From contig NW_025791658.1 in assembly GCF_921293095.1 (NCBI RefSeq), forward strand, positions 7,006,001-7,070,000: a stretch of DNA of 64,000 nucleotides, written 5' to 3'. This DNA is from Ischnura elegans. Lineage: Eukaryota; Arthropoda; Insecta; Odonata; Coenagrionidae. The notes under the pieces were generated by a model that saw nothing but the letters and a program-made list of their open reading frames with translations, was not told the DNA's origin and did no database searches. The position numbers were made by a program, and so were the translations under genes. Below are positions 3,577 to 62,213 of the stretch, piece after piece; position 1 is the stretch's first letter, and each line of letters begins with the position of its first letter.

Positions 3577-3610
<34 letters not shown>
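3480..3610. repeat. Simple repeats: poly-G, (ATA)n and (TA)n
   Basis: A G-rich run at 3480-3496 is followed by a trinucleotide ATA/ATT tract near 3545-3575 and an AT dinucleotide tract at about 3581-3608. Confidence 0.95.
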
Positions 3611-3612
<2 letters not shown>

Positions 3613-3756
3613 TTTGAAATGTTCCTCGGCGAGGTAAATAACGTAAAAAAGACCCTATGATGGGCAGTAGAACACACAAGGTAAAGATACAAAACTAGCT
3701 GAATTTTCGGTGGCATTACCACCTTCCTCGGAGTTACGTGAAAGAAAGAGAGTTAA

Positions 3757-4200: not shown

Positions 4201-4654
4201 GTATGTATTGCTGATATCCTTGATTTTCGGATCGGTTACTTGATTTTCGGAGCCGGATCTTTTGGATCGGATATTTTCGGATCCAAATGCATTTTCAAAT
4301 TGCTGACGCTGTGACTCCCCCTGAGATGATTGTTCAATCTCTTGGGAAGAGTCACACTATGTGCCAGTCGTATTTTGTCTTTTTTATTTCTCACGGCTGA
4401 AATTCACCTACTTAACCTCTGCGAGAGCTTTCAAACAAAACGGTTTATGAGTAGGACAAGAATCGCATGCCATGGTGAAATTCGAAGATAGAATCGGAAC
4501 TCTTTCCACCATTATTGCATTGCATTTACTGAATCTATCATTCAAAATTTCGGATCCAGATCCGATGTCTTCCGCGACTTTGGATCCGACGTATCCGATG
4601 AAGGGCAATATCCGCGGATATTTGGATCCGAGGTATCCGATCTGACCATCCCTA
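4200..4654 (-). mobile_element. hAT-like MITE fragment rich in GGATCCGA motifs
   Basis: The right end, read on the minus strand, begins TAGGGATGGTCAGATCGG, a form common among hAT termini. The interior carries many variants of GGATCCGA, CGGATATT and ATCCGAT, as expected of subterminal transposase-binding repeats. No matching left terminus is visible, so the element is incomplete. Confidence 0.45.
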
Positions 4655-4667: not shown

Positions 4668-5480
4668 TGAGAATTCCCTGCGCTCTCCTCCCCCTACTCC
4701 CTTATTTGTGCCTCTATGAATGACACAGGTCTCTTCGGAACCATTTTAAGTGAGAATTTGGGTAATACAATAAACGCCGAGAAATAAGCGATGAGATAGT
4801 GCCGTTCCCTTGACCTCTCATTCATCAATGTGTTCGACAGCTCTCACGTTTTTCTCGTTATGCCTGTAAATAATAAACCATTAGAGCTAGACTCAAACAT
4901 TAGAGTTGCATACATTTTAGTTGACGTAGACTTCAAGTGTAAACGTTCTTCACGAGATTAACTCACCCATCAATTCCTATCACGCACTTTGACGGGACAA
5001 AATAGAGGAAGATGGACATCGGTGTCGTTTCGAAGAAATTTTCAAGAGCCTAAATTGTTTAATCTTCGAATCCAGTCAATCGCTATATGCTGCTGTAGTT
5101 TCAAAAAGGAAATGTATTTTCGTTCAGATTTATAGGGTCGAAAAGATTTGATAATGCCGCAGGAGAATCTCAAAAGATAGTAATAGATTCCTTTGATTAA
5201 ACTTTGTAAATAATTTTAAGAGTATAGATAATTGTATGCATAATAAGTCCATGATAATAAGTCCATGCATAATAAGTAATAATTGAGGATTCCCTGCGCT
5301 ATCTTCCCCCTAATTCCGTATCTGCATCACTTCAAATGAGAGTGGTCTTTTCGGAACCATTTTACGTGAGAATCTGGGTAATTGAGAAAATAATACCAGT
5401 CCCTTAAACTCTCATTTATCTAGGTGTTCCACTGTGCATACCTTTTCTTATCCTTCCTGCTAAAAAAAATAAACCACTGA
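4668..5480 (+). repeat. Direct duplication about 610 bp apart
   Basis: The stretch from about 4670 to 4880 (GAATTCCCTGCGCTCTC..., TTCGGAACCATTTTA..., AATAAACCA) recurs diverged at about 5285-5480 (GGATTCCCTGCGCTATC..., TTCGGAACCATTTTACG..., AATAAACCA). The unit is not recognised. The intervening sequence shows nothing clear. Confidence 0.75.
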
Positions 5481-5507
5481 TGTGCTGCATATTACGAAAC
5501 CCATGAT

Positions 5508-10600: not shown

Positions 10601-11157
10601 AATAGGGTAGTTTCCTTCATCAAAGAAAACGAAAGGCATTGATTGCGATTCGTTGCCCACCATTAGTGTATTCATAATACACAAATTATTTGGTTTTTGA
10701 AATGCCGGTTTAGACGAATGGCAAGGGTCAAATTTTAACCTCATTTGAAAAAGGCCAGATTGGCGCCCATGCGATTCCACTCCGCATGACGTCACAAGGA
10801 CCTAGTTTCTACACGAGAGGATAGGAGTTATACATCGTCTGAGGTTACCAATGCATGCATGAGGCGCAGAGCTCAGGGAAACATGTCTTAATAATCACCT
10901 ATTAAAACTGGCTAAGTTCGGAAAGTTTTCTTCGTTTGATAAGGTATTTATAAACCTTTTTTAAGCCAAGCGCTACCATCCAGCAAGGTACTCAGCTATC
11001 CGCTAGCATCCTGCGACGTATCAGCGCTAAGCCTCGCCTCAAGGTCACCTCACCGGGCGGGAGGGGGAACCAGAAATACGATGTACGGAGATATTTCCCG
11101 GCATTCATACTTAAGCGTCGCGTTTTCGCGCGCTTGAAAATTTTCACTTTTCATTTA
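10601..11157 (+). repeat. Repeat A, full-length copy, left part
   Basis: This begins AATAGGGTAGTTTCCT and continues to the LINE insertion point. With the right part (14652-14764) it forms a roughly 670 bp unit whose ends are inverted (AATAGGGTRGTTTCCT). It is MITE-like, with no coding capacity. Other copies are at 3757-4200, 44248-47108 and 57627-58295. Confidence 0.85.
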
Positions 11158-30500: not shown

Positions 30501-33500
30501 GATTGTAAGGCAGTCTCAATGCCCAATATATCGGCCGTGTCCATGATGTCCCGACGAGAGTAGATTCCATTGTAGGTGAGTCGAGGCCGAAGCATACTTC
30601 CGAGAATATGGCGAAGCATTCGTAGCTGGATCTTTTGTGCCTTGTCATAATGCGAGGGGTATGATTATTTCCCCAGTATAAGAGATATATTGCTTTTAAA
30701 ACTCCCGGTTGTATGAGAGCATTACGAGGGCAAAATTTTGGAAGACAAGTAGTTCCTGAACTGGCCGCTCTCAGATGCCAACGAGCTTTGCGTTAATTTT
30801 TTCCGCCACTGTACCACTAGTGACTCAAATAATTTAGGAATGGCTGAGATGTGATTAATGGACTGTAATTTCTTACATTGATTTTATTCCCTGATTTGTG
30901 TGCGGGAGTGGCATTACTGGTTTTCCTTACTTCTAGGAAGAAACCTGTTTTTAAAGATGCATTGTCATTGTGAAATAATGGAGAAGTAAGAGCTTATTAT
31001 TTACACATGTTTAGCTACAAAGGAGGAACGAGAATGATCTGGCAGATTTTTTAATGTTTGGCTTACTTGGGCCAGATACAATTTACTTTTATGAGATTGA
31101 TAAAAAAGATAATTAAAATTTGACGCTGGCAACTTGTTTATGACTGCTATCTGTTTTCAGATCGGTTTGATAACCTCGAATTTCAGTTTTCGAGGATGCA
31201 TCAGCAGCTTGTCGTGGCCTCATCCATAAAATCGCACATCCTGTATACCTAACTGTGACTAGAAGTTGAACGACCCATCAAAGTTCATCCTCCTAAATCA
31301 GCATCACCGTTGACATCCAGAAAACCCTCATCCACATTTCTTCAATAGACTATCCACAGATCCAATGTCCCTGCTATGCATCTGAAAGCTCACTTGACTC
31401 ATGCTACATCTCCTTGAGTTGGATTTTCGTGTGTCCTTGAAAGGAATCGGACACTTTATGCCAGGTCTGGAATTGTGCCCAGCCTCAAATTGGTACATCA
31501 GTTCTCCAGCGGCGGCTTGACCTTTTCAGGCTTCTGTTTACATCAGATTCTTTTATTCCTTCTTCCATGGGGGTTACCCTTGCAGTAAAAAAATCCGGAG
31601 TAGGTGAAAACTTTACTTATGTAAGATGAAAATATTTTGGAATGTGAGAAGTCTTCATTTCTGACACAGAATGGAAATAACAGTGTCAGGCCTCAGTTTT
31701 TTATAAATTGGCAAAAAAATATTGGTGAATGGTATTTTTTATATTATTATACTTCAGTGACCAAAATTTCAAGTTTATAGACCTAATACCAATATTTAGT
31801 CGTCATACACCTCATGCACAGCTATTTGATAGCTTTAACATTATTTATAATAAAATAAATTCTATATTTCCCCAGATGTTCCTGTAGCAAAATTTTGTCT
31901 TGGTCCTGGTGATTATGTATCCCACTTAGCTTTTCCTTATATTTAAATATAAATGTCCTTTTGAACAAATTGTGGACTGAATCATCCTACATAATTTTCA
32001 TTGCATCTTTGAAATACACCAATCTCAAAAAGTTTCAATTATTTGTCAATAGGTACTTAAAGACTAAAGTGATTTTTGACCAGCTTTTTTATTACGACTC
32101 ACTATGCGTTGTTGTCTATCATACCATTCCAGGAGAGTTTGTGCTGTTGTTGCAACAGGTGACATAATGGTGTTACCACTGGTTGACTTATTGTCTTATA
32201 CTTGTTTATTGACCCTCAAACGGACAACCTAAATCTAAGACTTATGTGGCACTTAATGAAAAAACACAATATGAAGTTACTATTTTAGATATCAATATAA
32301 TGTTTTTTTCATTTTACTAAAAAGGAATTATTTGTTGATTTTAATATGCTAATACATTGCATAAAGGATAAATTTATTTATTTCAGCAATATTGGTTTGA
32401 TAATCCGGTCTATGCTCGAGCTTGTGTATCAGCTCGTGGCACTTTTCGCTGGTGGAGCAGAAACCAACATATCTGCCCGTTGCACTAAGAGGGTTAAAAC
32501 TTAACTTAACTTGTTTATGTAGACTTGTTTCAGAGGCTGATATATCGGTCCTTGCTGGTTGTGCGAAAACTGCCACCACTGACTTATGACCGACTTATTT
32601 GACTTTTTACATTTCATGATTGTAGCCTTTTCATTGGCTGCCATCTCATTTATACAAGTGTGCTTTATCTCTGCTGCTTACTTACATGGTTTCACCATAA
32701 ATAATAAAATTAAGTATATTAAATAATTTATAGTCTGAAATCTTGCAAATTCTGGACCTCTTGGATCTCGTTGTGGTCTGAAGAACAGTGCGAACGAACG
32801 AAGCTCTCGGAGTGAGTTTTACATGAGCACATTGTTTAGCCATCATACAGTGGCACTGTGATGGAAGGGAATATCACATTAAGTTTAAAAATAGACAAAC
32901 TGTAGTTTTATGAAATAGCCGGAGCATGGGAAATGATTTGGTCTTGGTTTTTTTATTTTGTATAAATATTATCCATCATGTTCTCTTCCTGACCAAGATT
33001 TGGAGCAGTACTAATTTATTGACTTTTGAAGGAGGTGAGTTTTTATTAAGTGTAACTTTAGCTACAGAGTATCCAATGGGAGAGGGCAGCTGATGATTAC
33101 TTTGGGTCCTATGCTGAGAATGTAAAGGTTGTGTTGAAATGGTCCCAATTTTTAACTTTTAAGTCATATTATTTGTAGGATTTGTGTTGTTAAGATCTCC
33201 TTGCCTAATTTCATTCCCGTTATTTCCGTAGTTTTTGGGTGATTGAATGACAGACAGAGAGATACGATTGTATTTTATATTATAATAGTGAAATGATTTT
33301 TTTTAATTCTAATTCATCTAGATTAAGAGCATCAGTTATTTGTTGATTTTGGTTGGGTTGAGTTTTTTTATCAGTGTTACTTTTTCTACAGAGTATCCAA
33401 AGAGAGGGGTCAGTGGAGCCTCGTGATGAAACAAACGACTGCATTCGAGATGCGACTGAAGGCTCCTCACAGCTCGAATGCTCAGTCCAAAAAACTGAAA

Positions 33501-42500: not shown

Positions 42501-45500
42501 ATCGCTACCTTGGTTTGACAAGGTTCTAACTGACATTTTTTGCAAAATTTGGTGTTTTCACTCAAGATAACTAAGTTTATGTTTCTCTATGTGTTGCACC
42601 GGTTTTTATTCCTCTATGTTATATAATAACAGATTTAGAACAGTGTCAAAGTTCCAACTGCAAGGAGAAAAAACTAATATTTGGTGTGACAAGGTTCTAA
42701 CTGCATTTTACTTATTTTATTACTCATACAAACATGTAAAAAAATAAAATAAATAACATAATTTCTTAAAGTAATAATTACTAGTGTATCTAGTGGATCA
42801 CTGGCTGGCCAAAAATCAAAAATAAATTCCTATTAATAATAGAAATAGAGCAGTTTAAAACTTTGACAAGGTTTTTCTCAAAACCAGCTGATGGTCAGAT
42901 AGAACCTTGTCAAACCAAGGTAGTGAAATGGTGCAATGACGAATGTATCTTGTCATTGGATATTCATAATTTTAGCACTATTTAGAGGAACAATATAATT
43001 ATTTTGAAAGCTTAGCAGTGTTAAAACATTCACAGCATACATAAATAATTCATATTTCATGAAACATGATGCATTTGCAGGATTAAAATAAAATTATAAG
43101 AGTAGCGATAGCTGTGTTCTCCATGTCCAATAATATTTTATTTCACGATTCTACGTTGATTACAAATTACAAAATATCATTTCATTGACCACCATTTGAA
43201 AGAGAACCACAGAAAAAAATAAATAGAGAATAGGAGAATACACCAAAGGATGAAGTTCGCCATTAGAAAAAATCTTTGACTTAGCCAGGATTCGAACCCG
43301 GATCTCCCACTTGCCGGTCTGGTGTGTTGGCCAGTCACACCACCAAGCCATTTCTCAGAGCGAACTTCGGGATGGGTTTTACCGAACAAGATGTTAGTGT
43401 CACGAGTCCAGACTGTGGCACATGTGGCAAGGGTCGTGCTTACTAAGCCACTGTCGGGGTGAAAAACCCTTATTTTTCCGCTGGTCTGCGATGACAAATT
43501 TCACAGCACTGCGGGAACATTTTTCATGGCGATCTTCATCCTTTGGTGTATTTAACTTTGCACTTGTGCGCGTGACTGCTTACAAAGTCACTTGTTCCTG
43601 CAGTGCTTTGAAATTCATTCAGTGGTTGTGGTATACATTCTTCCAAATGATTTTGCGCATAAATATTCGTGAAATGTACTCTTGACTGTTTATAGTACGA
43701 AATTTGTGCATCTGCTGTCATCACTCACAAAATCTCGTCATTGAATTTTCAAAGTTGAAGCACTATTTAGAGGAACAATATAATTATTTTGAAAGCTTAA
43801 AATGTTAAATAAAGTATACACAAATAATTCGTATTCGATGAAACATGATGCATTGGAAGAATTACAGTGATTTAGATCGAATAGCAATATCTATGTTCTC
43901 CATGTTTATAAATCACATTTTATTTCACATTTCTATGTTTATAACATGTTACAAAGTATCATTTCATTACCAACCATTTACAAGAGAATCACATAAAAAA
44001 TAAATTGAGAATAGGAGCACGACGTACAGAAAATTAATGGAATTGGAAGGGGTTAACAAAGTTCATAACACCTTCCAATTCCATTTTAATTCATTGGTTG
44101 TAAAAAAATTTTGCAAAGGGTTGAAAACATAAGGAAATAAAAAAATGAATTTGGGCCACCAAAAGTGTGCCTTGTTCGTTCAACCTGGTAATGAAATTTA
44201 AAGAGCCCACTGAAGGGTTGAAAAGAAGTCACAACTGACGGCCATACAATAGGGTCGTTACCTAATATTTTTTATAGCGAAAATGGAAAGATTATTACTC
44301 CTGGATTACATATTTCATGCTGTTAGATTTTTAAATGATGACATTTATTTCTCGTGGTTAAGTGAAAAGTGAAAATTTTCAAGCATGCGAAAACATGATG
44401 GCTAAGTAGGAATGCTGAGAAAATGCCCATTCTACATCATTCTGGTTCCCACTGCCGCAAGTGAGGTGACTTTGGGGTGAGGTTTTGAGTGCTGATATGA
44501 CGCAGGGTGCTAGAAGGTAGCAGAGTACCCGGCTAGCAAGTAGCACTTGGCTTAAATAAGGATTATCAATGTCCTATCAAACGAAGGAAACTTTCCGACC
44601 ATAGGCAGTTTTAATAGGTGATTATTAAGATATGCTTCCCTGAGCTCTGTGCCTCATGCATGCATTGCTAATCTCAGATGATGTAAAACTCCTATTTACT
44701 CGTATAGAAACTAGGTCCCTGTGATGCACAGTGGGCTGAAGTGGAAAAAAGCTGGCCAAAAATCAAAATATCGACTTTTTAATTTCGAACCGGGAATGGT
44801 ATATTATTATTTTAGAAGGTCCTGGGCATGTAAAACTGAATTTAATATTTTGTCAAAATTTTTTGCTTAATATTTATAGCCTGCCAAAAATCAATAAAAA
44901 TCAATGAAATTGTCAGTGTGCGATTTATACGTAACAGTTAAACGTTTGTTCCCCATGCAATGGAATATAGTTCATAATTCGGAATTTTCGAGCATATTTA
45001 TTGATAGAACCATTCTGTTAGTTGATTAGGAGTGAAATTTTGTTTAAGTCAATTGTTATTATTTACTTTAGAAATTGATAAAAATATCACTGTTTTTCGT
45101 TAATTTTTTAACTAATGCTAGGATAAAAGTAGTTACCGCCACTTGCCGCCCCTAAGATATTTACACCAAGAGTTAGACTGAAGTCTATATTGTAAAACGG
45201 AAAAGAAAAATCTTGCTCCAACTTGCTCCCCTTTTTTTTGTGGTAAAGCACAATGATGTCGGGCGTTTGTCGCTCCCTGTGACCCGCAATACAGGCACTC
45301 GGGAACTTAGGATGACATGCGTTGTAGTCCTTTTGAGAGACTGGATTTTCCCTTAAGTGTGAGTGCATCGTACTCAACTACTTCTTATTTGCTGTTATTT
45401 TTGGTTTGTGCCCTCCTCTGGCGATTATACCCCTGGGTCTTTCCACGAAAGCTGCGTGCGAATGGTAAAAACCTAACGGTTTGCGTGCTCTCCAAGCCGT

Positions 45501-48500
45501 TTGTCCTCTGCGCCTACCCCAATGCACCCAGATTTGTTCTCTTACTATGGACACGTGCAAGTGTTTCCATTCTACAAATTAGGTTTTCCCAAAATATGCC
45601 GTCTATACGATTGGCACGCTCATTTCTAGCCGAGTGTTCAGTATCTGTCTCCCTTCAGTATTCCTCGCTGAAGTGTGTGCCGAAGGAGGTTCACAGTTTA
45701 TTTGCCCAGTTATGGATACAGCATTAGTGACTTGCCAAGATTTACATAGTGTTATATTGGCAAATAGAAGGGGGACCATCAAGCAGAAGAAATTGTTAGT
45801 ACCTACTGGAGTTTTTATACTAAAACCTATTTTTGGGAGGAGATGAGAAATTAAAAACTTTGCTTGCGGCTTTCATTCAAAAAGTGTTTTTCATCAATTT
45901 TCTAAAGGGAGATGCGTTCACCAGAGTTAACCGTAGATGTCTGAAGTTGAATCATATTTGGATAAAACAGCCAATGACACTCCCTGACACTGTGCTAAAA
46001 TATCTCCCATTTTCATATCCTTTGGGTGTATGCCAATGTTTACGGATAAATGATAATATGTACTACACGCATATACATCTGCGCGAGTATTTCATTCGTT
46101 GTTGCCATAGTCCATGAATTGTAATTATTTCGTAGTAATTTGCCATTGTTTTCGGCTTAACTGAGAGCACTCCTCATGGAATACCGTCACTGCATTTTGA
46201 CAGTGCAAGTGAGAGGTCTAAACGTAGAAAAAAATAAAACTGAGAAGTCCTACTTCACTGGAGGAATTAAGTGTAGCAACTTCCATGGAATTCGCGAAAA
46301 ACACACCATGAAAATTTCTAGAATTGCCACAAATTATGACCTATTCCATAAGCTTCTGATTACGTCAGATCCACTTCTTGTTCTGCGGGGGTTCCCCGTA
46401 AAGTAAAAAATTTACCAGAGGAGGTGAAAAATCTTCTGGTGAAGAGCGAAAACACTTTAGAATATGAGGAGTCTTTATCCTCTAACTCAGAATAGAATTT
46501 AATGTGGCACACCTTTGTTCTGGGAAATTTGCAATAAAAATATTTGTCAATGGTATTAATTTTTATTATTACTCTTCAATGACCAAAATTTCAGGTTTAA
46601 AAGACTCAATAGCAATTTTCAATCATCATATCCCTTATGAGAACCTCCTAGGTAGCTCAAAAATAGTTGAATATGGAAGAAATTCTGAATTTCCCATGGT
46701 GTTCCCAAATCATAATTTCGACCTGCCCCTGGTAACTATGGTTCCCGCATAACTTTCCCCTATTTTTAAAATTCTATTGCCCTCATAAACACTGTTATGG
46801 ACTAAATCATCGTAAATAAGATTCATTGTGTCTATACAATACCCAATTCGCAAAAAGTTTCATTCATTTAGCAATACTTAAGGCTAAAGTGAATTTTGGC
46901 CAGCTTTTTTCGATTTCAGCCCACTGTGTGACGTCACGTGGAGTGGCATCGCATGGGCGACAATCTGGTCTTTTTCAAATGAGGTTAAATACACCATTAA
47001 CATTCGTCTTAACTGGGATTTCTAATACCAAATAATTTGCATATTATGAATACACTAATAGTGGGTAAAGAATGGCAATCAATGCCTTTCATTTTATTTG
47101 ACGAAGGTATCAAGCCTGTTGAGAGAAGGATGTTGAAACCCACTTTCTTAGATCAACTAAGAAATTTGTACAATGAAAAAACATTCAACTCAAGTTCTTT
47201 CTTTTAGAAATTTTTCTAAAAGTGTATTTTGACCTTATTGAGTGACACCAAGCATTCTGTTCTAGTTTTCTGTGAAAGTGGAGAAGGAAGACCATCTTGA
47301 TGAAGGGCATCATCCCGTGCCCTGCTCAACAGATCCGTCTGGAAGTGATGCCTTCGACCCCCTGGCAAATGATGAGATGGTGAGCTGCACAATTTTTCAA
47401 AAGTTGCCATGGGCATACAGAAATCATTGCACAGATGTAAAACAAATGAGGCTGGGAGCTGCCAGAGACTTGGTTGATGAGTTCTAGGCTTATGCTGCTT
47501 GAGCAATTGAGAATTTCTTTTATAGCATCACGGATAACATAGTATTAAAACACCGCTGAATATCCAGGTCTGTCAGAAGCAGGAAACTAAGGGTGATATT
47601 TTGCTGAATGAATAGGTATGGGAATTTCTTTTTCTGTTGAAAAATAAATGACATTAAGCCGTAGATCGTGCCGATCCATGAATGGGAATTAATGGGGGAA
47701 TTGGGGTTTGTCCTTATTTACCATTTTTGAAAGGTGTGTTGGATGATGGCAATGCAGATTTGTTGACAAAAGGTGTAAATGTTTGTTGCCTTATACTTGT
47801 TTTGGCCTACTTTGGTGAACAATTGGCATTGAGTGAAACAAAATGTGCTGGTTTCCTAGAACAGTTGAAGTCAACATTTTCCATCCACCAATGTTGACAA
47901 TGACTCCTGTCTCTCGAAAATTGCCTTAATTGGCTATTGTCTCAAGATGTGGCCTATTAGGTATTTCCTTCTGCTTTCTAAGGTGCATATATCTGTGAGA
48001 TAGCCTGAGCATTGTGAGCACTTTCACGGCTATAGCTTGTTCTAAAGCCTGATTGATATTCAGTTAAGATATTGTTTTCTCCCTTGCTTATTGCATTTCA
48101 CGTGTGTGTGCAGTTGCACTTAATATGCATGTATGTATGCATGTATTACATTTGTAAAACTTTGGTAACTCTCTCCGTTAAAACTACGCTGGATAAAATG
48201 AATACGCCATGACTTCACGAGGCCACAAAAAGAACGGCTTCACTTTATTCATAGGTGGCAGCACAATGCAAAAAACAAAATTCTCACTTAATGCCATTTC
48301 AACTGAATGAATATTTGAATTACTTACATTTCTTCTCATTAAGCTTCATCTGGCTTGATGTGAAGGCAGAATAATTTTTAGTTTTAAGTATACTGGGACT
48401 ATCTGCAGTGATAACTTTACAGGAGTCACCTGCAATGCACAAATCGTGCCAAAAATCCATATAGAAAAAATCATTCATCTTGATCAGGATTTGGACCCAG

Positions 48501-51500: not shown

Positions 51501-54500
51501 TTGCGCTTATGATTGCTGGTCCGTGTGTGGATTTTTTTTTGAAAAGTTTGGAAGGGAAAAAAAAAACTAATTTGGATGTAATATCATTTAGAAATTAGTT
51601 CCAGTTAATCGTTAGCTAAAATAGTTTTAATTCCCATGTTCAGTCATGATTTATATGTTGATACCTATTTTCAGTCTACTTCTACGGTGAAGGAAGAGCC
51701 GGTGGAGAATTGGGAAATGGTCGATGAAACAATGGCGGAGGCATTGGGTGAGTGTTCTCAAGGATTTTCAAATAACTCCTTTCAAATATGGCTGCTATTC
51801 ATTTATGTTAAAGGATGAAACACCCAAAATTGCCTTGCATTTGTACATTCTCTACCTTTAAGGCCAGAAGGAAAGGGCTTAAGACTTAATCATTAACGTT
51901 TTGCTGGGTTGATTTTCAGGCTGGATGGAAATTAATTTGTTACTTCAATCTTAAAAGAACATGTATTCTCCATTTTAAAGATTCACTCACATTGAAAGTT
52001 ATGTTTTAAAAATCTACAAAAACAACAATGCGCATGGTAACGCAGAGAAATTAACATTGAAATTGCATTCACATATATATTACACCAACAATTACCTACT
52101 CCTATATGCAGTCCAGCCATAGAGTGTAGCTCAATGACAGGTAGAAGGGTTTAGTTCAGGGTTGGGGTCAAGGTTGCCAGTAAGAAAGGGAAATGCCCCC
52201 TCCACATGTCAACAAAAGGCTCCGGCGAAGGAAGGAGTGAAAAGGGACTATGAGCTTGAAGGGTCAAAAGGGAGAATCCTTTGTTTAGGTGATTCAAAGA
52301 GAGGGTTTGTTTTGGGGATTCAGGTTTGCTTCAGTGATTCATATACATGTGACAACGTTGTATGTCCAGTTGAGGGTATGAGATGCGTTTGGGGGACAGC
52401 AGTTGGCTGTAAACCATGGTGGTGCGCGATGAACCCTTGAAATTTATGCCGAAGATAGAATGGATTTAACTCATTAACATATTTTTCCCAATAAAATTTA
52501 AAACACATTTTTTCAGATACTTAAGGTCAAAGGTCACATTGTGTGACCTCTGAATAAAAAAATCGGTATCTCAAGATCTCACATTATTTCACAGACACTT
52601 TGTTCCTTTCGCTTTTAAATGAGACCAACGGGCAGATTCTACCACAGTTAATAGCAAAGTTATGCTTTATTTTTGTAGAGCATGTGAGGGAAAATTTAGC
52701 ATTTTTCGTCATGTTTGCAACCCTGCTGTATAAATTTCATGTATAGCCAAGGGTTAACATTTTGTGTATGAGTAGAATTTCATGTGCTTTAACTTCCTAC
52801 CAAATTTTAAGCAAATCTGAGATAGTTGGATGGAAAAGTCCATTTTTCTGTGATGATTTGGCATGGAATGACCTGTTCTCCACCCCTCCTTTTGCACTGC
52901 CATCGGTCTACTCTCACCGGCTGGTCTGTATAATACTTCCATTGCTACATAACTTCCTTTATGACTGTCAACGGATTCGGAAAAGGTAGATCTTGCGAAA
53001 TACAGCTCGTGCTCTTTCTCTATGATGTTCTAAAATCTGATGAATCAAAGAGACAAGTTGATGGATTATTTCTTGATTTTAAGAAAGCTTTTGACATGGT
53101 ACATCACAGCAAACTTTTGTACAAATTACAGTTATGTGGATTAAACGAAGCAGTGGTAAACTGGATATGCGACTTTCTCTGTGATTGTAAACAAAAAGTG
53201 GTTCTTGATGGATTTAGCTCTGATGTCGTAAAAGTTAATCAGGCGTTCTACAAGGAACCGTAATTGGCCCCCTTCTGTTCATTGTATACATTAATGATAT
53301 CGGCTCCTGCATTAGCAGTAAAATATGTTTAGCAAGTGCTGGGAAAGATAATCGGGATCAATGACATGAACTGTTATTTCACAAATGTAATTGACATAAA
53401 ATGCTAATGTACTAGTCCAGAAAAAGGACTGATAAAGAAGATTGAGAGTGATGGCATGCACCATTACTTCACAAATCATAGATAAAATTGTCCGGGGCTA
53501 TTACTCACCAAGATAAATCTGCAGCGACGACTCGTGCCTTGCCTCACAAATCAAAGTACACACAATGTGCGAACTCATATACTTATTATAATACTCCCTT
53601 TTCGTTTGTTTTGCATTGTTAATAAAAATTGTTGTTCATTTTCACGTGACTGTCATTGTTTCATTCCATCATCAACAAGAATTGTAACAGCAGGTTTTCA
53701 AATAATCTTTTGAGCAAAGATTTTTCTACTACTTGAATGTCTAACTATATTGTTCAATTGTTTGTGAAATGTGTCTTTATGGTACTGCAAAATGTAGTAA
53801 TTTTGGCTGTCAAATATTAATATGGAAATTAGAGCGGTCTTTTCAGCCAACATTTCACATTCACCTTCCTTTTAATGATCTCAGTTCTCTCATCATATTG
53901 TTGTAGCCACTTTGGAACTAACGCCTTTTTTAATTTTTAGAAAAAGTTAGAGTAACTATAAAATTTAGTATTTTTACTCTTTTTCTTGGGATTTCTTATG
54001 ATTGTGCAGGGGATCGCCTATGAAATTGAGTCATAACTCATTCCATTCACCCCATCATTTGTGTAAGTGGTCGGAAGTGGGCCACATAGTATATAGGTAA
54101 AAAGTGGCTCTTTAAAAACTTGATATAGAAAGCAAGTTTATGAAACATATTATGAAAGTATTGCACCGAGGAAGTTTTACTTGTATGGCTACTTGAGGTC
54201 ATTTGAAGCCTCTACCTGCCCGTTGAACAAATGACTTTGGCTTCATATTAAATGCCTTACAACTATTTGTTTTAATGCAAAATTCTTTTCTAGGGCTACC
54301 AGCTCCTGACAGAGTGCATCTGCCAACAACGTCAACTTCCTATCTGCTGGCCGAAAGACGGATAAGTATTGATCCAGGTGAGGACTGTATTGCTCTCTCA
54401 GTCTCAAAGACCCTCATTGAAACCAAGATTGGAGCTGCCCATGCAGGAGAAAGATGGAATGTGATGGATAAAGACAGGGAAAAATGTGGTGCTCTTCAAG

Positions 54501-55981
54501 CTGATGAGATAGCATTTTGCTCAATCCCTAATGATGGACAATGTTCTACAAAATACATGCCAGCATTTCCTGAGCCAGTAGTGGAAGACAATGAGGAGAC
54601 AGGCAAATGCTTGAGCAAAAATCCAGGGAATAGCTGCCGATCAAACGAAGATGCATGTCATTGCTCCAACTGCAGAGATGGATTCAGCACCAAAAATGAA
54701 CTCAACAACCCCCACGAAATCCATTTTGGTGTCGAAAATTTGGACGTAGATGCTGAATTGCCAGTGGGAAGAGATGAGTCTCATGATACCCTTCTGTCAT
54801 GTGGAGGAAAGGAGATTCCTTGTGAACCAACCACTTCCAAGACTGTAAAAGGATTGAAGAGGAAAAAACAGGATCTGAGCAAACCAGGACATGGGTATCA
54901 AACGGAAACCTCTGAAGGAATAGGGGAGATGAGAAATGCGAGAGGATCAAGTGTTGCAGAAGATGGTGAACTACATAGCCAAAATATATCCTCAAAATCC
55001 TCCACTTGTATTGGAAACACAGGCAGTGATGCGGGTGCTGATACGAAAGATGGATCTTGCTCAAGGAGTGTGTCTGAAAAGTTTGCCGCGGAGGAAAAAA
55101 TCCCGGACAGCCACACGGGTGGTATGCGTGCAAAAGGGAAGCAGTACACTTGCGACGACTGTTCCAAGTCTTTCTCGAAGCGTAGTGACCTCGTCAATCA
55201 CATCCGGACGCACACGGGGGAAAAGCCATTTTCCTGCGGTGCGTGCGAAAAGTCTTTCTCGAAGCGCAGTGACCTCACTTATCACATGCGCACGCACACG
55301 GGAGAGAAGCCATTTTCCTGCAGTGCGTGCGCAAAGTCTTTCTCGAAGAGCAGTGACCTCACCTATCACATGCGCATTCACACGGGGGAGAAGCCATTTT
55401 CCTGCAGCGCATGCGAAAAATCCTTCACTAGAAAGTGCCGGCTCGAAGTTCATATGCGCACGCACACCGGAGACAAACCTTATACGTGTGCAGTTTGCTC
55501 CAGAGCTTTTGCTCAGATTAGTGCGCGCAACGTACACATGCAAACTCACATAGGAGAGAATCTTTCTGCCCGTGTGGTTTCCTCCACTTGTACCAGAAAC
55601 CTACACAATGATGCAGGTGCTAGTGGTACGAAAGAGAGGCCATGCTCGTGCAGTGTGTGTGAAGAGGTTTCAACTGAGAAAGGAATCCTTGACATCCACC
55701 CAGGTATACGTCCGAGAGAGAGGCGTCACACGTGTGAGGTGTGCTGCAAGGCTTTCTACAAGACTTCTCATCTCACCAGCCATATGCGAATACATACCGG
55801 AGAAAAACCTTTTCCCTGCACCGAATGTGCAAAGTCTTTCCCTACAAAGGGACAGCTTCAAGTGCATATGCGTTCGCATACAGGGGAAAAGCCTTTTAAG
55901 TGTGGAATTTGCTCCACAGCCTTTGCTTATCATCGTCACTTTAAATCGCACATGGACAAGCACATGCTGGAGAAAAACTGA
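24364..55981 (+). CDS. ZAD-C2H2 zinc-finger transcription factor, seven exons, 822 codons
   Basis: Joined exons: 24364-24531, 24656-24793, 33392-33547, 47266-47379, 48830-48961, 51675-51747, 54294-55981; all introns are GT-AG and the reading frame stays open. The protein should bind DNA in the nucleus. The N-terminal ZAD has zinc ligands C21, C24, C68 and C71 and normally dimerises. Residues of about 103-544 are an acidic, Ser-rich linker with VKVE, VKEE and VKEE motifs that fit SUMO consensus sites, a KRKK basic patch, and one degenerate finger. Fingers 1-5 lie at about 545-679, fingers 6-8 at 739-817, most joined by TGEKP-type linkers; a second degenerate finger lies between the groups. The insect-specific ZAD makes the family call firm, but no ortholog name is supportable. 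The start could also be M11 (24394). Confidence 0.9.
24656..24793 (+). CDS. ZAD gene exon 2
   Basis: Codes 46 residues after acceptor ATTAG, with the second zinc-binding pair CPQC and the helix KKLMEFCDFKKICYESD typical of a ZAD. The donor is AGG|GTGAGT, phase 0. Confidence 0.88.
26663..26785 (+). repeat. Two-copy repeat with AAGGGGCCATA and CCAAAAGT motifs
   Basis: 26663-26705 and 26740-26785 share AAGGGGCCATA, CGTATGG and GCCAAAAGT; the first contains a short palindrome, CCATACGTATGG. Origin unknown. Confidence 0.6.
27749..30173 (-). pseudogene. LINE ORF with the reverse transcriptase core deleted
   Basis: Blocks in order on the minus strand: endonuclease start (30173-29883, with YAPTEDAND and LLGDA), a frameshift, endonuclease end (29724-29194, with VNQIDHILV and CDSDHYLV carrying the SDH motif), RT fingers (29185-28526, with GRAPGEDQIVPELIK, YRGITLLN and GFRPGRGTTDQIF), a stop, then the RT thumb and C-terminus (28447-27749, with ERKTKYMRM, LIRPVVTYGAETW, RLAWLGYVKRM and KRGRPRKRW). 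Compared with the first LINE, about 140 codons between the fingers and the ERKTKYMRM block are gone, including the catalytic FADD/YADD box. It cannot have produced reverse transcriptase since that deletion. Confidence 0.85.
27749..30203 (-). mobile_element. LINE (RTE-like), 5'-truncated, second copy
   Basis: This is a non-LTR retrotransposon on the minus strand, related in layout to the one at 11-14.6 kb but diverged. A candidate TSD, CAAAATAGT, is at 27740-27748 and 30204-30212. The 3' tail has the same AAGTAAGTAG style. The 5' leader and the start of the endonuclease are missing. It lies antisense in intron 2 of the ZAD gene. Confidence 0.85.
30395..30500 (-). mobile_element. tRNA-derived SINE head (minus) with CA-repeat tail
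   Basis: On the minus strand an A-box-like TGATGTAGTGGGTAAAGT (30471-30490) and a B-box-like GGATCAAGTCCC (30433-30444) have tRNA spacing. A (CA)n run at about 30399-30412 follows. It is not a functional tRNA: the stems do not form. Confidence 0.6.
31485..32107 (+). mobile_element. Transib-like element fragment (3' part)
   Basis: Aligns with 46340-46928 of the 2.2 kb element: GCTTCTGTTTACATCAGAT, GGGGGTTAC, GTAAAAAA, GGAGTAGGTGAAAA, TGACCAAAATTTCA, AAAAAGTTTCA and CCAGCTTTTTT. It ends with a degenerate terminus, CACTATG. The 5' part is missing and all frames are broken. Confidence 0.65.
33020..33127 (+). repeat. Duplicate of the exon 3 acceptor region; possible cassette exon
   Basis: 33020-33090 resembles 33345-33415: GTGAGTTTTTATTAAGTGT against GAGTTTTTTTATCAGTGT, and CTACAGAGTATCCAA in both. 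After CTACAG the phase-0 frame SIQWERAADDYFGSYAEN is open for 18 codons (33068-33121) up to GTAAAG. It could be an alternative exon before exon 3 or a dead duplicate. Confidence 0.5.
33392..33547 (+). CDS. ZAD gene exon 3
   Basis: Codes 52 residues of the linker, acidic and rich in Cys and Ser. Acceptor TTTCTACAG, donor TTG|GTAAGT, phase 0 on both sides. No domain. Confidence 0.8.
33600..34620 (+). repeat. Direct repeats (about 85 bp) flanking the LINE fragment
   Basis: 33605-33690 (ACTACAAAAGTGGGTTTGTA, TTGTGTGATATGA) recurs at 34532-34617 (ACTACAAAAGTTGGTTTGTA, TTGTGTGATATGA). The copies are too long and diverged to be a LINE target duplication; a local segmental duplication is more likely. 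Confidence 0.7.
33700..34130 (+). pseudogene. LINE C-terminus and 3' UTR (Jockey/CR1-type)
   Basis: The frame KAMLFVINHYGRTDSVTQML, ESGWEPLETRRLRAWL and YGNSFFPIEP (33735-33992) is the final part of a Jockey/CR1-type LINE reverse-transcriptase protein, where a conserved SFFPR-like motif precedes the end. The 3' UTR ends with TGTAGATGTAGATGA, a short hexamer tail. Everything upstream is missing. The same family left tails at 6.6, 20.3, 47.4 and 62.8 kb. Confidence 0.7.
34770..34925 (+). mobile_element. SINE with B box and AAAT-repeat tail
   Basis: GGGTTTGAATCCC (34787-34799) is a good RNA polymerase III B box. The body ends in (AAAT)n at about 34908-34924. The A box is not recognisable, so the head may be truncated. 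Confidence 0.55.
36815..37515 (+). repeat. Tandem duplication, units of about 290 bp, period about 410 bp
   Basis: 36815-37104 and 37226-37515 share GGGAGAAGCTTTTTCAT (first copy AGGAGAAGC), GATTGGAGGCCCT, GATTTTGATGCTAT, GAGAATTTCACAGCTTT and GTATGATGGTTCTATTA. No coding content is seen. Confidence 0.8.
37764..38095. repeat. Segment with recurring GTAACA/TGTTAC motifs
   Basis: GTAACA or its complement TGTTAC, with close variants, occurs about ten times in 330 bp in both orientations (for example 37772, 37801, 37834, 37863, 37942, 38022-38038). It ends where the LINE fragment at 38097 begins. It may be a MITE with subterminal repeats, but its termini are not clear. Confidence 0.4.
38097..38615 (+). 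pseudogene. LINE C-terminal fragment (Jockey/R1-type) with 3' UTR
   Basis: An open frame up to 38502 contains GLLTGHYHVMRHMHLLGV, then CRWCEMGEETTTHLICECP, a Cys/His pattern found after the RNase H region in Jockey and R1-type non-LTR elements, then GSPFIEPKEV. The 3' UTR ends in (ATCA)n-like repeats at about 38594-38613. The rest of the element is missing because of 5' truncation, the usual fate of LINE insertions. Confidence 0.75.
38774..39715 (+). pseudogene. Tigger/pogo-like transposase remnant
   Basis: TA (38772-38773) precedes CAGTGGAACCTCGTTAAAGC, a typical pogo/Tigger terminus. A start MAKKHYTRESKKK lies at 39218 and is followed by a stop. Later phrases are EKASVLKPKAEYFGD and, after a frameshift, IDETEIFYNVLPDKTLAVRG (about 39625-39680), matching the first catalytic Asp region of pogo/Tigger (CENP-B-like DDE) transposases. 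The second and third acidic residues and the right terminus are not found, so it is a truncated, dead copy. Confidence 0.75.
39885..40774 (+). mobile_element. Non-autonomous hAT element, 890 bp, perfect 8 bp TSD
   Basis: Begins TAGTGATGGGTTGATCAT and ends, inverted, TAGTGATGGGCAAAGTCG. GCGCTCTC is duplicated exactly at 39877-39884 and 40775-40782. The interior has many GATTGAATCAC and TTTTCGATCATGATTC motifs near both ends. No transposase is present. Confidence 0.88.
42505..42923. mobile_element. MITE with 30 bp terminal inverted repeats
   Basis: CTACCTTGGTTTGACAAGGT begins the left arm (42505-42534), and its inverse occupies 42894-42923 with one mismatch in 30. Partial GACAAGGTT motifs recur inside (42689, 42862). 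The target duplication is unclear and the superfamily unknown. Confidence 0.75.
42951..44020 (+). repeat. Direct duplication of a 285 bp segment split by a SINE-bearing insert
   Basis: 42951-43235 and 43735-44020 share GCACTATTTAGAGGAACAAT, TATTTTGAAAGCTTA, GAAACATGATGCATT, TGTTCTCCATGT and AGAGAATAGGAG. The stretch between (43236-43734) includes a tRNA-derived SINE and an inverted copy of its tail. Confidence 0.8.
43236..43352 (-). mobile_element. tRNA-derived SINE (minus)
   Basis: On the minus strand, TGGCTTGGTGGTGTGACTGG (A-box region, 43332-43351) is followed by GGTTCGAATCC (perfect B box, 43288-43298) and a non-tRNA body. The body's 3' sequence ATCCTTTGGTGTATT recurs in plus orientation at 43539-43553, pointing to a second, inverted copy or partial copy. 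Not a functional tRNA gene. Confidence 0.75.
44030..44092. repeat. Short hairpin
   Basis: TGGAATTGGAAGG (44038-44050) pairs perfectly with CCTTCCAATTCCA (44071-44083) across a 20-base loop; outer AATTAA/TTAATT can extend the stem past a 2-base bulge. The size suits a small-RNA precursor or a MITE core; no other evidence. Confidence 0.5.
44727..46928 (+). mobile_element. Transib-like transposon with RSS-heptamer-like ends
   Basis: The 2,202 bp element begins CACAGTGGGCTGAAGTGG and, inverted, CACAGTGGGCTGAAATCG; both arms continue with AAAAAAGCTGGCC. Flanks are TGATG (44722-44726) and TGACG (46929-46933); the unoccupied repeat A copy at 57.8 kb reads CTGTGACGTCACGTGG on the minus strand, so a 5 bp TSD of TGACG with one C-to-T change fits exactly. 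Transib elements have 5 bp TSDs and CACWRTG-type ends related to the RAG recombination signal heptamer CACAGTG. The superfamily call rests mainly on these ends; the decayed coding content is described separately. Confidence 0.65.
45300..46500 (+). pseudogene. Decayed transposase within the Transib-like element
   Basis: Open stretches are short and shifted. At 46210-46400 a frame reads GIREKHTMKISRIATNYDLF then HKLLITSDPLLVLRG, and the adjacent frame continues NLPEEVKNLLVKSENTLEYE. This pattern (an SR..TN.DL..LL..SDP.. block followed by a Leu/Glu-rich end) fits the C-terminal region of Transib/RAG1-like transposases as I know them. No intact DDE triad can be assembled by eye, and stops interrupt every frame. 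An open frame at 45317-45727 is Cys/Leu-rich and probably spurious. Confidence 0.45.
47266..47379 (+). CDS. ZAD gene exon 4
   Basis: Codes 38 residues beginning FSVKVEKEDHLDEG after acceptor GTTCTAG; ends ATG|GTGAGC, phase 0. VKVE fits a SUMO-acceptor consensus. Acidic linker. Confidence 0.75.
47408..47650 (+). pseudogene. LINE C-terminus fragment, decayed, just after exon 4
   Basis: Aligns with 33750-33995 of the Jockey/CR1-type fragment: GGCTGGGAGC, CAATTGAGAAT, GAATATCCAGGTCTG against ATATTTCCAGATCTG, and ATAGGTATGGGAATT. It starts about 28 bp after the exon 4 donor. All frames are broken. Confidence 0.65.
48430..48565 (-). mobile_element. tRNA-derived SINE (minus)
   Basis: On the minus strand, CCTCAGTAGCTTAACTGGC (A-box region, 48531-48549) and GGTCCAAATCC (B-box-like, 48487-48497) sit at tRNA spacing, followed by AAGATGAATGATTTTTTCT, similar to the body of the 43.3 kb SINE. 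Confidence 0.65.
48830..48961 (+). CDS. ZAD gene exon 5
   Basis: Codes 44 residues with FVKEEPISDDEEG near its start; acceptor GGATTAG, donor CAG|GTAATG, phase 0. VKEE fits a SUMO consensus, and the following acidic run strengthens it. Confidence 0.82.
49215..49445 (+). mobile_element. TTAA-target MITE (piggyBac-like)
   Basis: The 231 bp element lies between TTAA (49211-49214) and TTAA (49446-49449). It starts CCTGTCAATGCCC and ends, inverted, CCCGTCAGTGACC. No coding content. Confidence 0.65.
50281..51050 (+). repeat. Tandem duplication of about 375 bp with pogo-like motifs
   Basis: 50281-50645 and 50660-51050 share TAACGAAATTTCC (second copy same), TTTTCCTCAGT, GCATTCAGGCTC, GTGGCTAGT, GAAACACTA and GGATTTGAGGTCCTCAACTG variants. 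The repeated TATAACGAA/TGTAACGAA motifs resemble pogo-type termini, so the unit may derive from a MITE. Confidence 0.7.
51675..51747 (+). CDS. ZAD gene exon 6
   Basis: Codes 24 residues plus one base: STSTVKEEPVENWEMVDETM. Acceptor ATTTTCAG, donor TTGG|GTGAGT, phase 1. A second VKEEP motif. Confidence 0.8.
51748..54293 (+). other. ZAD gene intron 6
   Basis: GTGAGT...TTCTAG. It holds an RT fragment (53.0-53.35 kb). 51.8-52.9 kb and 53.5-54.29 kb contain nothing I can support. Confidence 0.75.
52961..53340 (+). pseudogene. LINE reverse-transcriptase fragment (Jockey/CR1-type)
   Basis: GFGKGRSCEIQLVLFLYDVL, VDGLFLDFKKAFDMVHHSKL and KQKVVLDGFSSD are RT palm and fingers motifs (LDFKKAFD includes the first catalytic Asp). 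A frameshift near 53240 shifts the frame to one reading SGVLQG, IGPLLFIVYINDI. The FADD box would follow but is degraded to LASA. Both ends are missing. Confidence 0.75.
54294..55981 (+). CDS. ZAD gene exon 7: linker and eight C2H2 fingers
   Basis: Acceptor TTTCTAG restores phase 1 and the frame runs 562 codons to TGA (55979-55981). Fingers 1-5 start at 55145 with 28-residue spacing, then a broken finger (CSVCEEVSTEKG, last His missing), then fingers 6-8 from 55727. Linkers are TGEKPF or close. Helix residues (-1,2,3,6) are KSDN, KSDY, KSDY, RCRV, QSAV, KSHS, TGQV and YRHS for fingers 1-8. An earlier degenerate finger (CSNCRDGF) has wrong spacing. Fingers 1-3 are nearly identical, pointing to recent tandem duplication. 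Confidence 0.92.
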
Positions 55982-57626: not shown

Positions 57627-58295
57627 ATTAGGGTAGTTTCCTTCATCGAAGAAAGCAAAATGCATTGATATTGGTTCATTACCCACCATTAGTGTATAAA
57701 TAATATACAAATTATTTGGTTTTATAAATCCCAGTTTAGACGAATGGCAACGGTTAATTTTAACCGCATTTGAATAAGGCCAGATTGGTGCCCATGCAGA
57801 TGCCACTCCACGTGACGTCACAGAGACCTAGTATCTATATGAGTAGATAGGAGTTTGACGTTGTCTGAGATTAGTAATGCATGCATGAGGCACAGAGCTC
57901 AGGGAAACATCTCATATTAATCACACATTAAAAATACCTAAGTTCGGAAAGTTTCCTTCGTTTGATAGGGGAATAAAAATCCTTACTTAAGTCAGCCACT
58001 ACCTGCTAACAGGGTACTCACTTACCTGCTAGCAGTCTGCGTCGTATCAGCGCTCAAGCCTCGCCCCAAGATCACCTCACACACCGACAGCTGGAACCAT
58101 AAATACGTCACGCAGACTTTTCCCATCATTCCTACGCAGCCGTCGCGTTTTCGGGCGCTTGTATCGTTTCACTTTTCGTTTAATCGCGAAAAATAGATAT
58201 CGTCATTTGAAAATCTAAGATCGTGAAATGCTTGCTGCAGGAGTAATAATCTTTCGATTTCGTCAGTATAAAAAATAGTAGGAATCCACCCTATT
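57627..58295 (+). repeat. Repeat A, full-length copy
   Basis: ATTAGGGTAGTTTCCTTCAT at the start, GTGACGTCAC, ATGCATGCATGAGGC and terminal CCACCCTATT. Uninterrupted, so it gives the empty-site sequence for both nested insertions. Confidence 0.88.
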
Positions 58296-59425: not shown

Positions 59426-59545
59426 GAGAAAAAATTAAAAATGTGACTTGAAATGCAAAATCCTTGTTATGAACGTGATTTCACGAACAAAATCGCGTTC
59501 ATAACAAGGATTTTGCATTTCAAGTCACATTTTTAATTTTTTCTC
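59426..59545. repeat. 50 bp perfect inverted repeat at the satellite edge
   Basis: 59426-59475 is the exact inverse of 59496-59545, with a 20 bp spacer. The right arm is the first unit of the satellite array; the left arm is a single inverted unit. Confidence 0.92.
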
Positions 59546-62209
59546 CCTTCGTAGTAAAATCGTGTTAATAACAAGGATTTCGCATTTCAAGTCACATGTT
59601 TAATTTTTTCTGTCTTCGTTGTAAAATCGCGTTAATAGCAAGGATTTTTCCTTTCAAGTCACGTTTATAATTATTTCTCTCTTCGTTTTAAAATCGCGTT
59701 AATAACAAGGATTTTGCCTTTCAAGTCACATTTTAAATTTTTTCTCTGTTCGTAGTAAAATCGCGTTTATAACAAGGATTTTGCATTTCAAGTCATATTT
59801 TTATTTTTTCTGATTTCACGAACAAAATCGCGTTCATAACAACGGTTTTGCATTTCAAGTCACATTTTAAATTTTTTCTCTCTTCGCAGTAAAAACGCTT
59901 TAATAAAAAAGATATTGCATTTCAAGTCACATTTTTAATTATTTCTCTCTTCGTAGTAAACTCGCGTTAATAACAAGGATTTTGCATTTCAAGCCACATT
60001 TTTAAATTTTTCTCTCTTCGTAGTAAAATCGCGTTAGTAACAAGGATTTTGCATTTCAAGTCATATTTTAAATTTTTTCTCACTTCGTAGTAAACTCGAG
60101 TTATTAACAAGGATTTTGAATTTCAAGTACATTATTAATTTTTTCTCTGTTCGCAGTGAAATCGCGTTCATAACAAGGATTTTGCATTTCAAGTCACATT
60201 TTGAATTTTTTCTCTCTTCGCAGTGAAATCGTGTTAATAACAAGGATTTTTCAAGGAGAAACAATTCAAGTCACATTTTAAATTTTTTCTCTGTTCATAT
60301 TAAAATCGCGTTCTTAAAAAAGATTTTGCATTTCAAGTCACTTTTTTTATTATTTCTCTCTTCGTAGTAAACTCGCGTTAATAACAATGATTTTGGATTT
60401 CAAGTACATTTTTAATTTTTTCTCTTTTCGCAGTGAAATCGCGTCATAAACAAGGATTTTGCATTTCAAGTCACATTTTTAATTATTTCTCTCTTCGTAG
60501 TAAACTCGGGTTAATAACAAGGATTTTGCATTTCAAGTCAAATTTTTAATTATTTCTCTCTTCGTAGTAAACTCGCGATAATAACAAGGATTTTGCATTC
60601 AAGTCACATTTTTAATTTTTTCTCTGTTCGTATTGAATCGCGTTCATAACAAGGAATTTGTCTTTTCAAGTCACATTTTTAATTTTTTCTCTCTTCGCAG
60701 TAAACTCGCGTTAATAACAATGATTTTGTATTTAAAGTACATTTTTAATTTTTTCTCTGTTCGTAGTGAAATCGCGTTAATAACAAGGATTTTGCATTCA
60801 AGTCACATTTTTAATTTTTTCTCTGTTCGTTGTGAAATCGAGTTCATAACAAGGATTTTGCTTTTCAAGTCACATTTTAAATTTTTTCTCTGTTCGTATT
60901 AAAATCGCGTTCATAACAAGGATTTTGCATTTCAAGTCACAATTTTAATTATTTCTCTCTTCGTAGTAAAATCGCGTTAATAACAAGGTTTTTGCATTTC
61001 AAGTACATTTTTAATTTTTTCTCTCTTCGTAGTAAAAACGCGTTCATAACAAGGATTATGCATATCAAGTCACATTTTTAATTTTTTCTCTGTTCGTTGT
61101 GAAATCGAGTTCATAACAAGGATTTTGCATTTCAAGTCAATTTTTTAATTATTTCTCTCTTCGTAGTAAACTCGCGTTCATTACAAGGATTTTGCATTTC
61201 AAGTCACAATTTTAATTATTTCTCTCTTCGTAGTAAAATGGCGTTAATAACAAGGTTTTTGCATTTCAAGTACATTTTTAATTTTTTCTCTTTTCGCAGT
61301 GAAATCGCGTCATAAACAAGGATTTTGCATTTCAAGTCACTTTTTTAATTATTTCTCTCTTCGTAGTAAACTCGGGTTAATAACAAGGATTTTGCATTTC
61401 AAGTCAAATTTTTAATTATTTCTCTCTTCGTAGTAAAATCGCGTTAATAACAAGGTTTTTGCATTTCAAGTCACATTTTTAATTATTTTTCTCTTCGTAG
61501 TAAACTCGCGATAATAACAAGGATTTTGTATTCAAGTCACATTTTTAATTTTTTCTCTGTTCTAATTGAAATCGCGTTCATAACAAGGATTTTGCATTTC
61601 AAGTAACATTTTTAATTTATTCTCTCTTCGGAGTAAAATCGCGTTAATTACAAGGATTTTGTATTTAAAGTACATTTTTAATTTTTTCTCTGTTCGTAGT
61701 GAAATCGCGTTAATAACAAGGATTTTGCATTCAAGTCACATTTTTAATTTTTTCTGTGTTCGTTGTGAAATCGAGTTCATAACAAGGATTTTGCTTTTCA
61801 AGTCACATTTTAAATTTTTTCTCTGTTCGTATTAAAATCGCGTTAGTAACAAGGATTTTGCATTTCAAGTCACATTTTTAATTTTTTCTCTGTTCGTAGT
61901 GAAATCGCGTTAATAACAAGGATTTTGCATTCAAGTCACATTTTTAATTTTTTCTCTGTTCGTTATGAAATCGAGTTCATAACAAGGATTTTGCTTTTCA
62001 AGTCACATTTTAAATTTTTTCTCTGTTCGTATTAAAATCGCGTTCATAACAAGGATTTTGCATTTCAAGTCACATTTTTAATTTTTTCTCTCTTCGTAAT
62101 AAACTCGCGTTAATAACAGGGATTTTGCATTCAAGTAACATTTTTAATTTTTTCTCTGTTCGTTGTGAAATCGAGTTCATAACAAGGATTTTGCATTTCA
62201 AGTCACATT
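59496..62209 (+). repeat. Satellite array, 67 bp period, about 40 units
   Basis: Units read like AATCGCGTTAATAACAAGG, ATTTTGCATTTCAAGTCAC, ATTTTTAATTTTTTCTCTCT, TCGTAGTAA. Spacing between successive TCGTAGTAAA-type marks is 67 bp at the left end (59551, 59618, 59685, 59752). Variants (TTCGTTGTGAAATCGAG, TTCGTATTAAAATCG, AAGTACATTTTT) recur in the same order, showing higher-order structure. Open frames in it are by-products of the period. Confidence 0.93.
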
Positions 62210-62213
62210 TTAA

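What the first reader, a model, noticed from the sequence alone, without database searches (positions are those of the whole stretch)
44727..46928. Transib-like transposon whose ends start with the exact RAG signal heptamer CACAGTG
Seen: both ends of a 2.2 kb segment start CACAGTGGGCTGAA, run into an A-rich block ending in GCTGG about 20 bases in, and are flanked by TGATG/TGACG; an intact repeat A copy at 57.8 kb shows the unoccupied TGACG. Known: Transib elements make 5 bp target duplications, have CACWRTG-like ends, and are relatives of the source of RAG1 and its recombination signals. Inference: this is a Transib family whose heptamer equals the RSS consensus, with an A-rich block placed like a nonamer.
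Basis: partly seen in the sequence, partly recalled or inferred. Interest (0 to 1): 0.75.

Follow-up and report, generated by a model that had tools for sequence, protein, structure and literature searches.

The report
Defective Transib transposon with RSS-like ends
This is a 2.2-kb broken copy of a Transib jumping gene, a relative of the enzyme that cuts antibody genes; longer relatives with an apparently intact gene sit elsewhere in the same genome, so it is a new family member of a well-known kind rather than something new.

Summary
Window 44727-46928 has 39-bp inverted ends (36/39 identical) starting CACAGTG, a 5-bp duplication with one change (TGATG/TGACG), and two empty sites in other repeat copies. 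Of 39 copies fetched from the window's genome, 28 show both ends: 23 have an exact 5-bp duplication and none an exact 3-, 4- or 6-10-bp one; 63 of 67 ends read CACAGTG. The target is C-R-N-Y-G in 22 of 23. The window copy makes no working transposase. It is an internal-deletion form of a 4.15-kb element with nearly identical ends (37-38 of 39), which encodes a predicted five-exon, 531-aa transposase matching Helicoverpa zea Transib at E=5e-122, 45% identity, with the three catalytic residues aligned. The deletion took all three from the window copy; movement in trans is inferred. The exact RSS heptamer is not new: two papers say some Transibs have it (passages). New member of a known kind.

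The parts
44722..44726 (.). left copy of the 5-bp target site duplication, TGATG (one change from TGACG)
   Evidence: sequence; empty sites read TGACG
46929..46933 (.). right copy of the 5-bp target site duplication, TGACG
44727..44765 (+). left terminal inverted repeat, 39 bp, beginning with heptamer CACAGTG (44727-44733)
   Evidence: 36/39 identical to the right end
46890..46928 (-). right terminal inverted repeat, 39 bp, beginning with heptamer CACAGTG (46928-46922)
44756..44764 (+). nonamer-like CCAAAAATC, 22 bp after the heptamer (7/9 to ACAAAAACC)
   Evidence: spacer chosen after looking; shuffle P about 0.013 for spacers 22-24 and 0.127 for any spacer 8-39
46891..46899 (-). nonamer-like CCAAAATTC, 22 bp after the heptamer (6/9)
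44727..46296 (+). 5' part, colinear with the first 1582 bp of the 4.15-kb relative, reaching just past the predicted start codon
   Evidence: 86% identity to L068 (reverse complement 394-1975)
46292..46296 (+). deletion junction: about 1.93 kb of the full-length element missing; CGCG present at both breakpoints
46292..46928 (+). 3' part, colinear with the last 639 bp of the 4.15-kb relative; holds the end of transposase exon 5 (to about 46495) and the 3' flank
   Evidence: 86% identity to L068 (reverse complement 3910-4548)
46161..46403 (+). open frame that carries the C-terminal transposase remnant, downstream of the lost catalytic Glu
   Evidence: PDB top hit 6pqn HzTransib transposase E=0.0045; profile of 17 sequences gives it as the only hit, E=0.0033
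31518..32106 (+). older relative of which only the 3' part aligns, about 72% identical; ends CACTATG followed by CGTTG
57816..57820 (-). empty target site TGACG in another copy of the host repeat
10790..10794 (-). second empty target site TGACG in another copy of the host repeat

Best explanation
A non-autonomous Transib DNA transposon, inserted into an older repeat. Shown: it is an internally deleted relative of a 4.15-kb Transib in the same genome with nearly identical 39-bp ends, which carries a predicted five-exon DDE transposase gene, open in two copies. The deleted part holds all three catalytic residues. Inferred from established Transib/RAG biochemistry: a full-length transposase binds the CACAGTG ends, nicks at the heptamer border, cuts by hairpin formation on the flanks, and inserts the excised element into a 5-bp staggered C-R-N-Y-G target, moving the defective copies in trans.
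For: Ends, duplication and empty sites. 23/28 exact 5-bp duplications and 63/67 ends with CACAGTG. Target C-R-N-Y-G in 22 of 23 sites. Transposase remnant in the window copy. Three full-length relatives (L068, L069, L071) and a partly deleted one (L070), each with an exact 5-bp duplication. Five exons with GT/AG introns and an open 531-aa frame in L068 and L071. HzTransib match E=5.1e-122, 202/453 identical. D142, D244 and E454 align with chain residues that at a constant offset of 17 are D126, D225 and E436, the DDE motif given in PMC6941560 (passages). 6 of 19 group-1 copies lie within 1.0% of that group's consensus, which suggests recent movement.
Against: No activity was measured. 5 of 28 copies lack an exact duplication: L010 and L036 have one mismatch; L009 has TGGCG on both sides if one extra base is allowed; L018 and L021 share flanks and have none; the window copy itself has one mismatch. 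Pfam found no family in the 531-aa protein at E up to 10, so the assignment rests on the PDB match. The exon model is predicted without transcripts, its exon-5 acceptor was chosen after another failed, and an upstream exon is possible. The full-length copies fetched are 85-86% identical to the window copy, so the exact master of this family was not seen; they were picked for their long frames (4 of 150 matches).
Confidence: 0.97

Rival explanations
1. A member of another superfamily (for example an hAT variant with 5-bp duplications) that happens to have CAC ends.
For: From the ends alone, 5-bp duplications and CA-type ends are not unique to Transib (recalled, from no call). Pfam gives no transposase match in 10 frames of the window copy.
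Against: The remnant's top PDB hit is HzTransib, and the full-length partner with nearly the same ends matches it at E=5.1e-122 with the three catalytic residues aligned.
Confidence: 0.01
2. A RAG-like (ProtoRAG-type) transposon that also carries a RAG2-like gene.
For: CAC ends and 5-bp duplications are shared with RAGL transposons (PMC7204232 passages); amphioxus RAG1L is the second PDB hit (E=0.03).
Against: The transposase is 45% identical to HzTransib and only marginally matched to RAG1L. The gene spans bases 1570-3724 of 4155; 6 of the 12 other or overlapping frames of 80 aa or more in L068 were scanned and none matched a Pfam family below E 0.5. What the first 1.57 kb does is unknown.
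Confidence: 0.01
3. Same element, but all partners are dead too, so nothing moves now (not exclusive of the family assignment).
For: The window copy is 5.3% from its group consensus. L069 has a 1-bp frame disruption in exon 4 relative to L068 and L071.
Against: L068 and L071 keep the whole 531-aa frame, and 6 of 19 group-1 copies lie within 1.0% of consensus.
Confidence: 0.35

Closest known systems
Hztransib of Helicoverpa zea (structures 6pqn, 6pqr, 6pqu, 6pqx, 6pqy, 6pr5)
   Same: Transposase 45% identical over 453 aligned residues with the same DDE residues; 5-bp duplication, GCTCG in the described copy (PMC1852546 passages)
   Different: 4155 bp here (L068) against 3518 bp. This family's ends start CACAGTG; the Hztransib heptamer letters were not seen in any call
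hopper and transib2 of Drosophila melanogaster
   Same: 5-bp duplications at a palindromic GC-rich target, CCANTGG (PMC3276498 passages); here C-R-N-Y-G in 22 of 23
   Different: Centre is CGNCG in 13 of 23 and CAATG in 3 of 23
Transib families compared with RSSs in PMC8355894 and PMC6941560
   Same: Heptamers identical to RSS ones are reported for some (passages); symmetric 20-22-bp spacers for one set, as at 22 bp here
   Different: The 12/23 asymmetry reported for a few is not seen here.
ProtoRAG of amphioxus and vertebrate RSS
   Same: CAC-type heptamer and 5-bp duplications (PMC8289069 passages)
   Different: Transposase far closer to Transib; ProtoRAG's heptamer is CACTATG

Membership tests
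Transib superfamily | 5-bp target site duplication | tested here: met
   23/28 exact in the 2.2-kb family; 4/4 in the longer copies fetched; window copy 4/5 bases
Transib superfamily | terminal inverted repeats beginning CAC, heptamer-like | tested here: met
   63/67 ends exactly CACAGTG, 66/67 begin CAC; longer copies 7/8 CACAGTG, 1/8 CACAGCG
Transib superfamily | Transib transposase | tested here: met
   full-length partner: HzTransib E=5.1e-122; window copy: C-terminal remnant only, E=0.0045
Transib superfamily | DDE catalytic triad | tested here: met
   D142, D244, E454 in L068; in the window copy the three codons fall in the deleted part
Transib superfamily | cut-and-paste with flank hairpins | not testable with these tools
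   reported for Hztransib (PMC6941560 passages)
RSS-like end (heptamer, 12 or 23 spacer, nonamer) | heptamer CACAGTG | tested here: met
RSS-like end (heptamer, 12 or 23 spacer, nonamer) | nonamer ACAAAAACC after exactly 12 or 23 bp | tested here: not met
   at most 4/9 at 12 bp and at most 5/9 at 23 bp; 6-7/9 at 22 bp
RAGL (RAG1L-RAG2L) transposon | RAG1L and RAG2L gene pair | tested here: inconclusive
   transposase is Transib-type; 6 further frames of L068 show no kelch or PHD family in Pfam, but no spliced RAG2-like gene was specifically sought

The most novel reading that the evidence does not exclude
A living Transib whose two ends each carry the exact RSS heptamer and a 7/9 nonamer after 22 bp (close to a 23-RSS), as in L068 and L069, with an intact transposase in L068 and L071, so that its ends might be cut by vertebrate RAG1/2 and its transposase might cut a 23-RSS: a natural halfway case for testing how RSSs arose from transposon ends.
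Probability: 0.08. Interest if true: 0.5.

Novelty: new member of a known kind. Interest (0 to 1): 0.22.

Why it matters
It gives a clean Transib family with many defective copies, some young, and apparently intact full-length partners, whose heptamer equals the RSS consensus. That makes it a usable test substrate for Transib/RAG end recognition, but it changes no established view: RSS-identical heptamers in some Transibs are already described (passages).

Tried and rejected
Pfam scans: 10 of the 21 frames gave two unnamed-function families at E 0.086 and 0.093; 17 remnant sequences gave five unrelated families, best E 0.0046 in one member, no transposase; the 531-aa protein gave none; 6 further frames of L068 gave one at E 0.5. 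The remnant profile used the window frame and 16 of the 33 copy frames listed. Read-through of the other two forward frames against the PDB gave no transposase; the reverse frames were not searched there. Viral contigs: no match to the end pattern; 22 stretches matched a peptide pattern but none was a relative of the remnant. A copy count by end pattern did not complete, so copy number is a lower bound. A search for relatives of the 31.5-kb copy did not complete. A first exon model for L069 with the strongest exon-5 acceptor gave stops and another acceptor gave an open frame; L068 and L071 have one more base in exon 4, and in them the strongest acceptor gives the open frame. The idea that the A-run at 19-24 is the nonamer was rejected as placed. 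Group 2 is simply the 8 copies not in group 1 and is mixed (L028, L030 and L034 are 8-9% from its consensus). Kapitonov and Jurka 2005 is not held. The script stopped with an error after printing the column counts used here; the duplications were tallied again.
Full report
WHAT IS THERE. Window 44727-46928 is a 2202-bp insertion with 39-bp inverted ends, 36/39 identical, each starting CACAGTGGGCTGAA. It sits inside an older repeat (44243-44726 and 46929-47124). Two other copies of that repeat, at 57.8 and 10.79 kb, lack the insertion and read TGTGACGTCA across the site, whereas the occupied site reads TGTGATG-[element]-TGACGTCA. The simplest reading is that 5 bases were duplicated and one left base has since changed.

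GENOME-WIDE COPIES. I fetched 39 places with flanks. 28 have both ends. Exact abutting repeats of 5 bp occur in 23 of 28; of 3, 4, 6, 7, 8, 9 or 10 bp in none; of 2 bp in 13. The five without an exact 5-bp repeat: L010 and L036 have one mismatch; L009 has TGGCG on both sides if one extra base is allowed; L018 and L021 share the same flanks and show no clear duplication. The 23 duplications follow C-R-N-Y-G in 22; the exception is TGACG. CGNCG accounts for 13 of 23, and 16 of 23 are palindromic around the centre. Of 67 ends, 63 are CACAGTG exactly and 66 begin CAC. Among 27 full-length copies including the window's, 19 form group 1 (0.8-5.3% from its consensus; the window copy is 5.3%); the other 8 are a mixed rest (1.6-9.0%). 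Six group-1 copies lie within 1.0% of the consensus, to which they also contributed.

WHAT IT ENCODES. No scanned window frame matches a Pfam family below E 0.08. The read-through of forward frame 1 has HzTransib transposase (6pqn) as its top PDB hit at E=0.079. The 81-aa frame 46161-46403 alone gives E=0.0045, with an unrelated second hit at 0.35, and a profile of 17 sequences gives HzTransib as the only hit at E=0.0033. On their own these are weak but specific.

THE FULL-LENGTH PARTNER. A protein search of the genome with that frame gave 150 matches (150 of 1393 candidates scored), including diverged ones in open frames of up to 164 aa. Three hold a complete element of 4150-4155 bp (L068, L069, L071) and one a partly deleted element of 2604 bp (L070). 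All four have exact 5-bp duplications: CGCCG, CGACG, CGACG and CAACG (L068, L069, L071, L070). Seven of their eight ends start CACAGTG; L070's right end starts CACAGCG. L068's ends match the window's at 37 and 38 of 39. L068 and L071 carry a predicted five-exon frame with GT/AG introns encoding 531 aa without stops; L069 is one base short in exon 4. The reading starts at an ATG inside a longer open frame, so an upstream exon is possible. The protein matches HzTransib at E=5.1e-122 over residues 38-495, across all four predicted exon joins; the next hit is amphioxus RAG1L at E=0.03. In the printed alignment 202 of 453 aligned residues are identical. D142, D244 and E454 fall on chain residues 109, 208 and 419, which at a constant offset of 17 equal D126, D225 and E436, the DDE motif given for Hztransib in PMC6941560 (passages). 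Six other frames of L068 matched no Pfam family below E 0.5.

HOW THE WINDOW COPY AROSE. Its bases 1-1570 align to L068 394-1975 (reverse complement) and 1566-2202 to 3910-4548, at 86% each. About 1.93 kb is missing between, with CGCG at both breakpoints. The codons of D142, D244 and E454 start at 2386, 2772 and 3881 in L068, all inside the missing stretch. So the window copy cannot make an active DDE transposase; it keeps both ends. That a full-length transposase moves it in trans is inference from nearly identical ends and from young copies.

RSS RESEMBLANCE. The RSS consensus heptamer is CACAGTG and the nonamer ACAAAAACC (PMC8289069 passages). The heptamer is exact. On the window's two ends the nonamer match is 4/9 after 12 bp, 5/9 and 4/9 after 23 bp, 7/9 and 6/9 after 22 bp; 8 of 10 genomic ends scored have 7/9 at 22 bp. 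In 20,000 shuffles of one end, 7/9 or better at spacers 22-24 arises in 1.3% and at any spacer 8-39 in 12.7%; the spacer was chosen after looking. PMC8355894 describes one set of Transib ends with symmetric 20-22-bp spacers, and a few asymmetric ones with some heptamers and nonamers identical to canonical RSSs (passages). PMC6941560 says that some Transibs have heptamers and nonamers identical to the RSS consensus with various spacers (passages). Against the nonamer reading, PMC8289069 says that symmetric Transib ends such as Hztransib's have little or no similarity to the nonamer (passages). So the exact heptamer is not new. A search for papers holding both Transib and CACAGTG listed 3, none on this family by its title (listing; one of the three is PMC8289069, read in passages).

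VERDICT. It is a non-autonomous member of a Transib family. I did not find the family named, but no transposon library was available to check. Host taxon was not determined. Interest is low to moderate.

Noticed in passing
31518-32106: An older relative of the same Transib family of which only the 3' part aligns; its end reads CATAGTG from outside and is followed by CGTTG, which fits the C-R-N-Y-G target.
   Followed up: partly
59489-62211: Tandem array of about 41 copies of a 67-bp unit, 85% matches.
   Followed up: no
43276-43350 (-): tRNA-Ala (GGC) predicted by ARAGORN, and a tRNA match in Rfam, about 1.4 kb from the element; gene or tRNA-derived repeat not decided.
   Followed up: no
54227-55981 (+): 584-aa open frame with repeated HTGEKPF-type zinc-finger linkers (label recalled), partly a tandem 84-bp repeat.
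   Followed up: no
11173-13926 and 27704-29784 (-): Broken frames that look like non-LTR retrotransposon reverse transcriptase and endonuclease (label recalled, not tested).
   Followed up: no
L071 (reverse complement) 4905-5501: The repeat that hosts the window insertion also lies about 280 bp beyond the end of a full-length Transib copy on another contig.
   Followed up: no
L018, L021: Two near-identical copies on different contigs with the same flanks and no clear target duplication, as from a duplicated segment.
   Followed up: no
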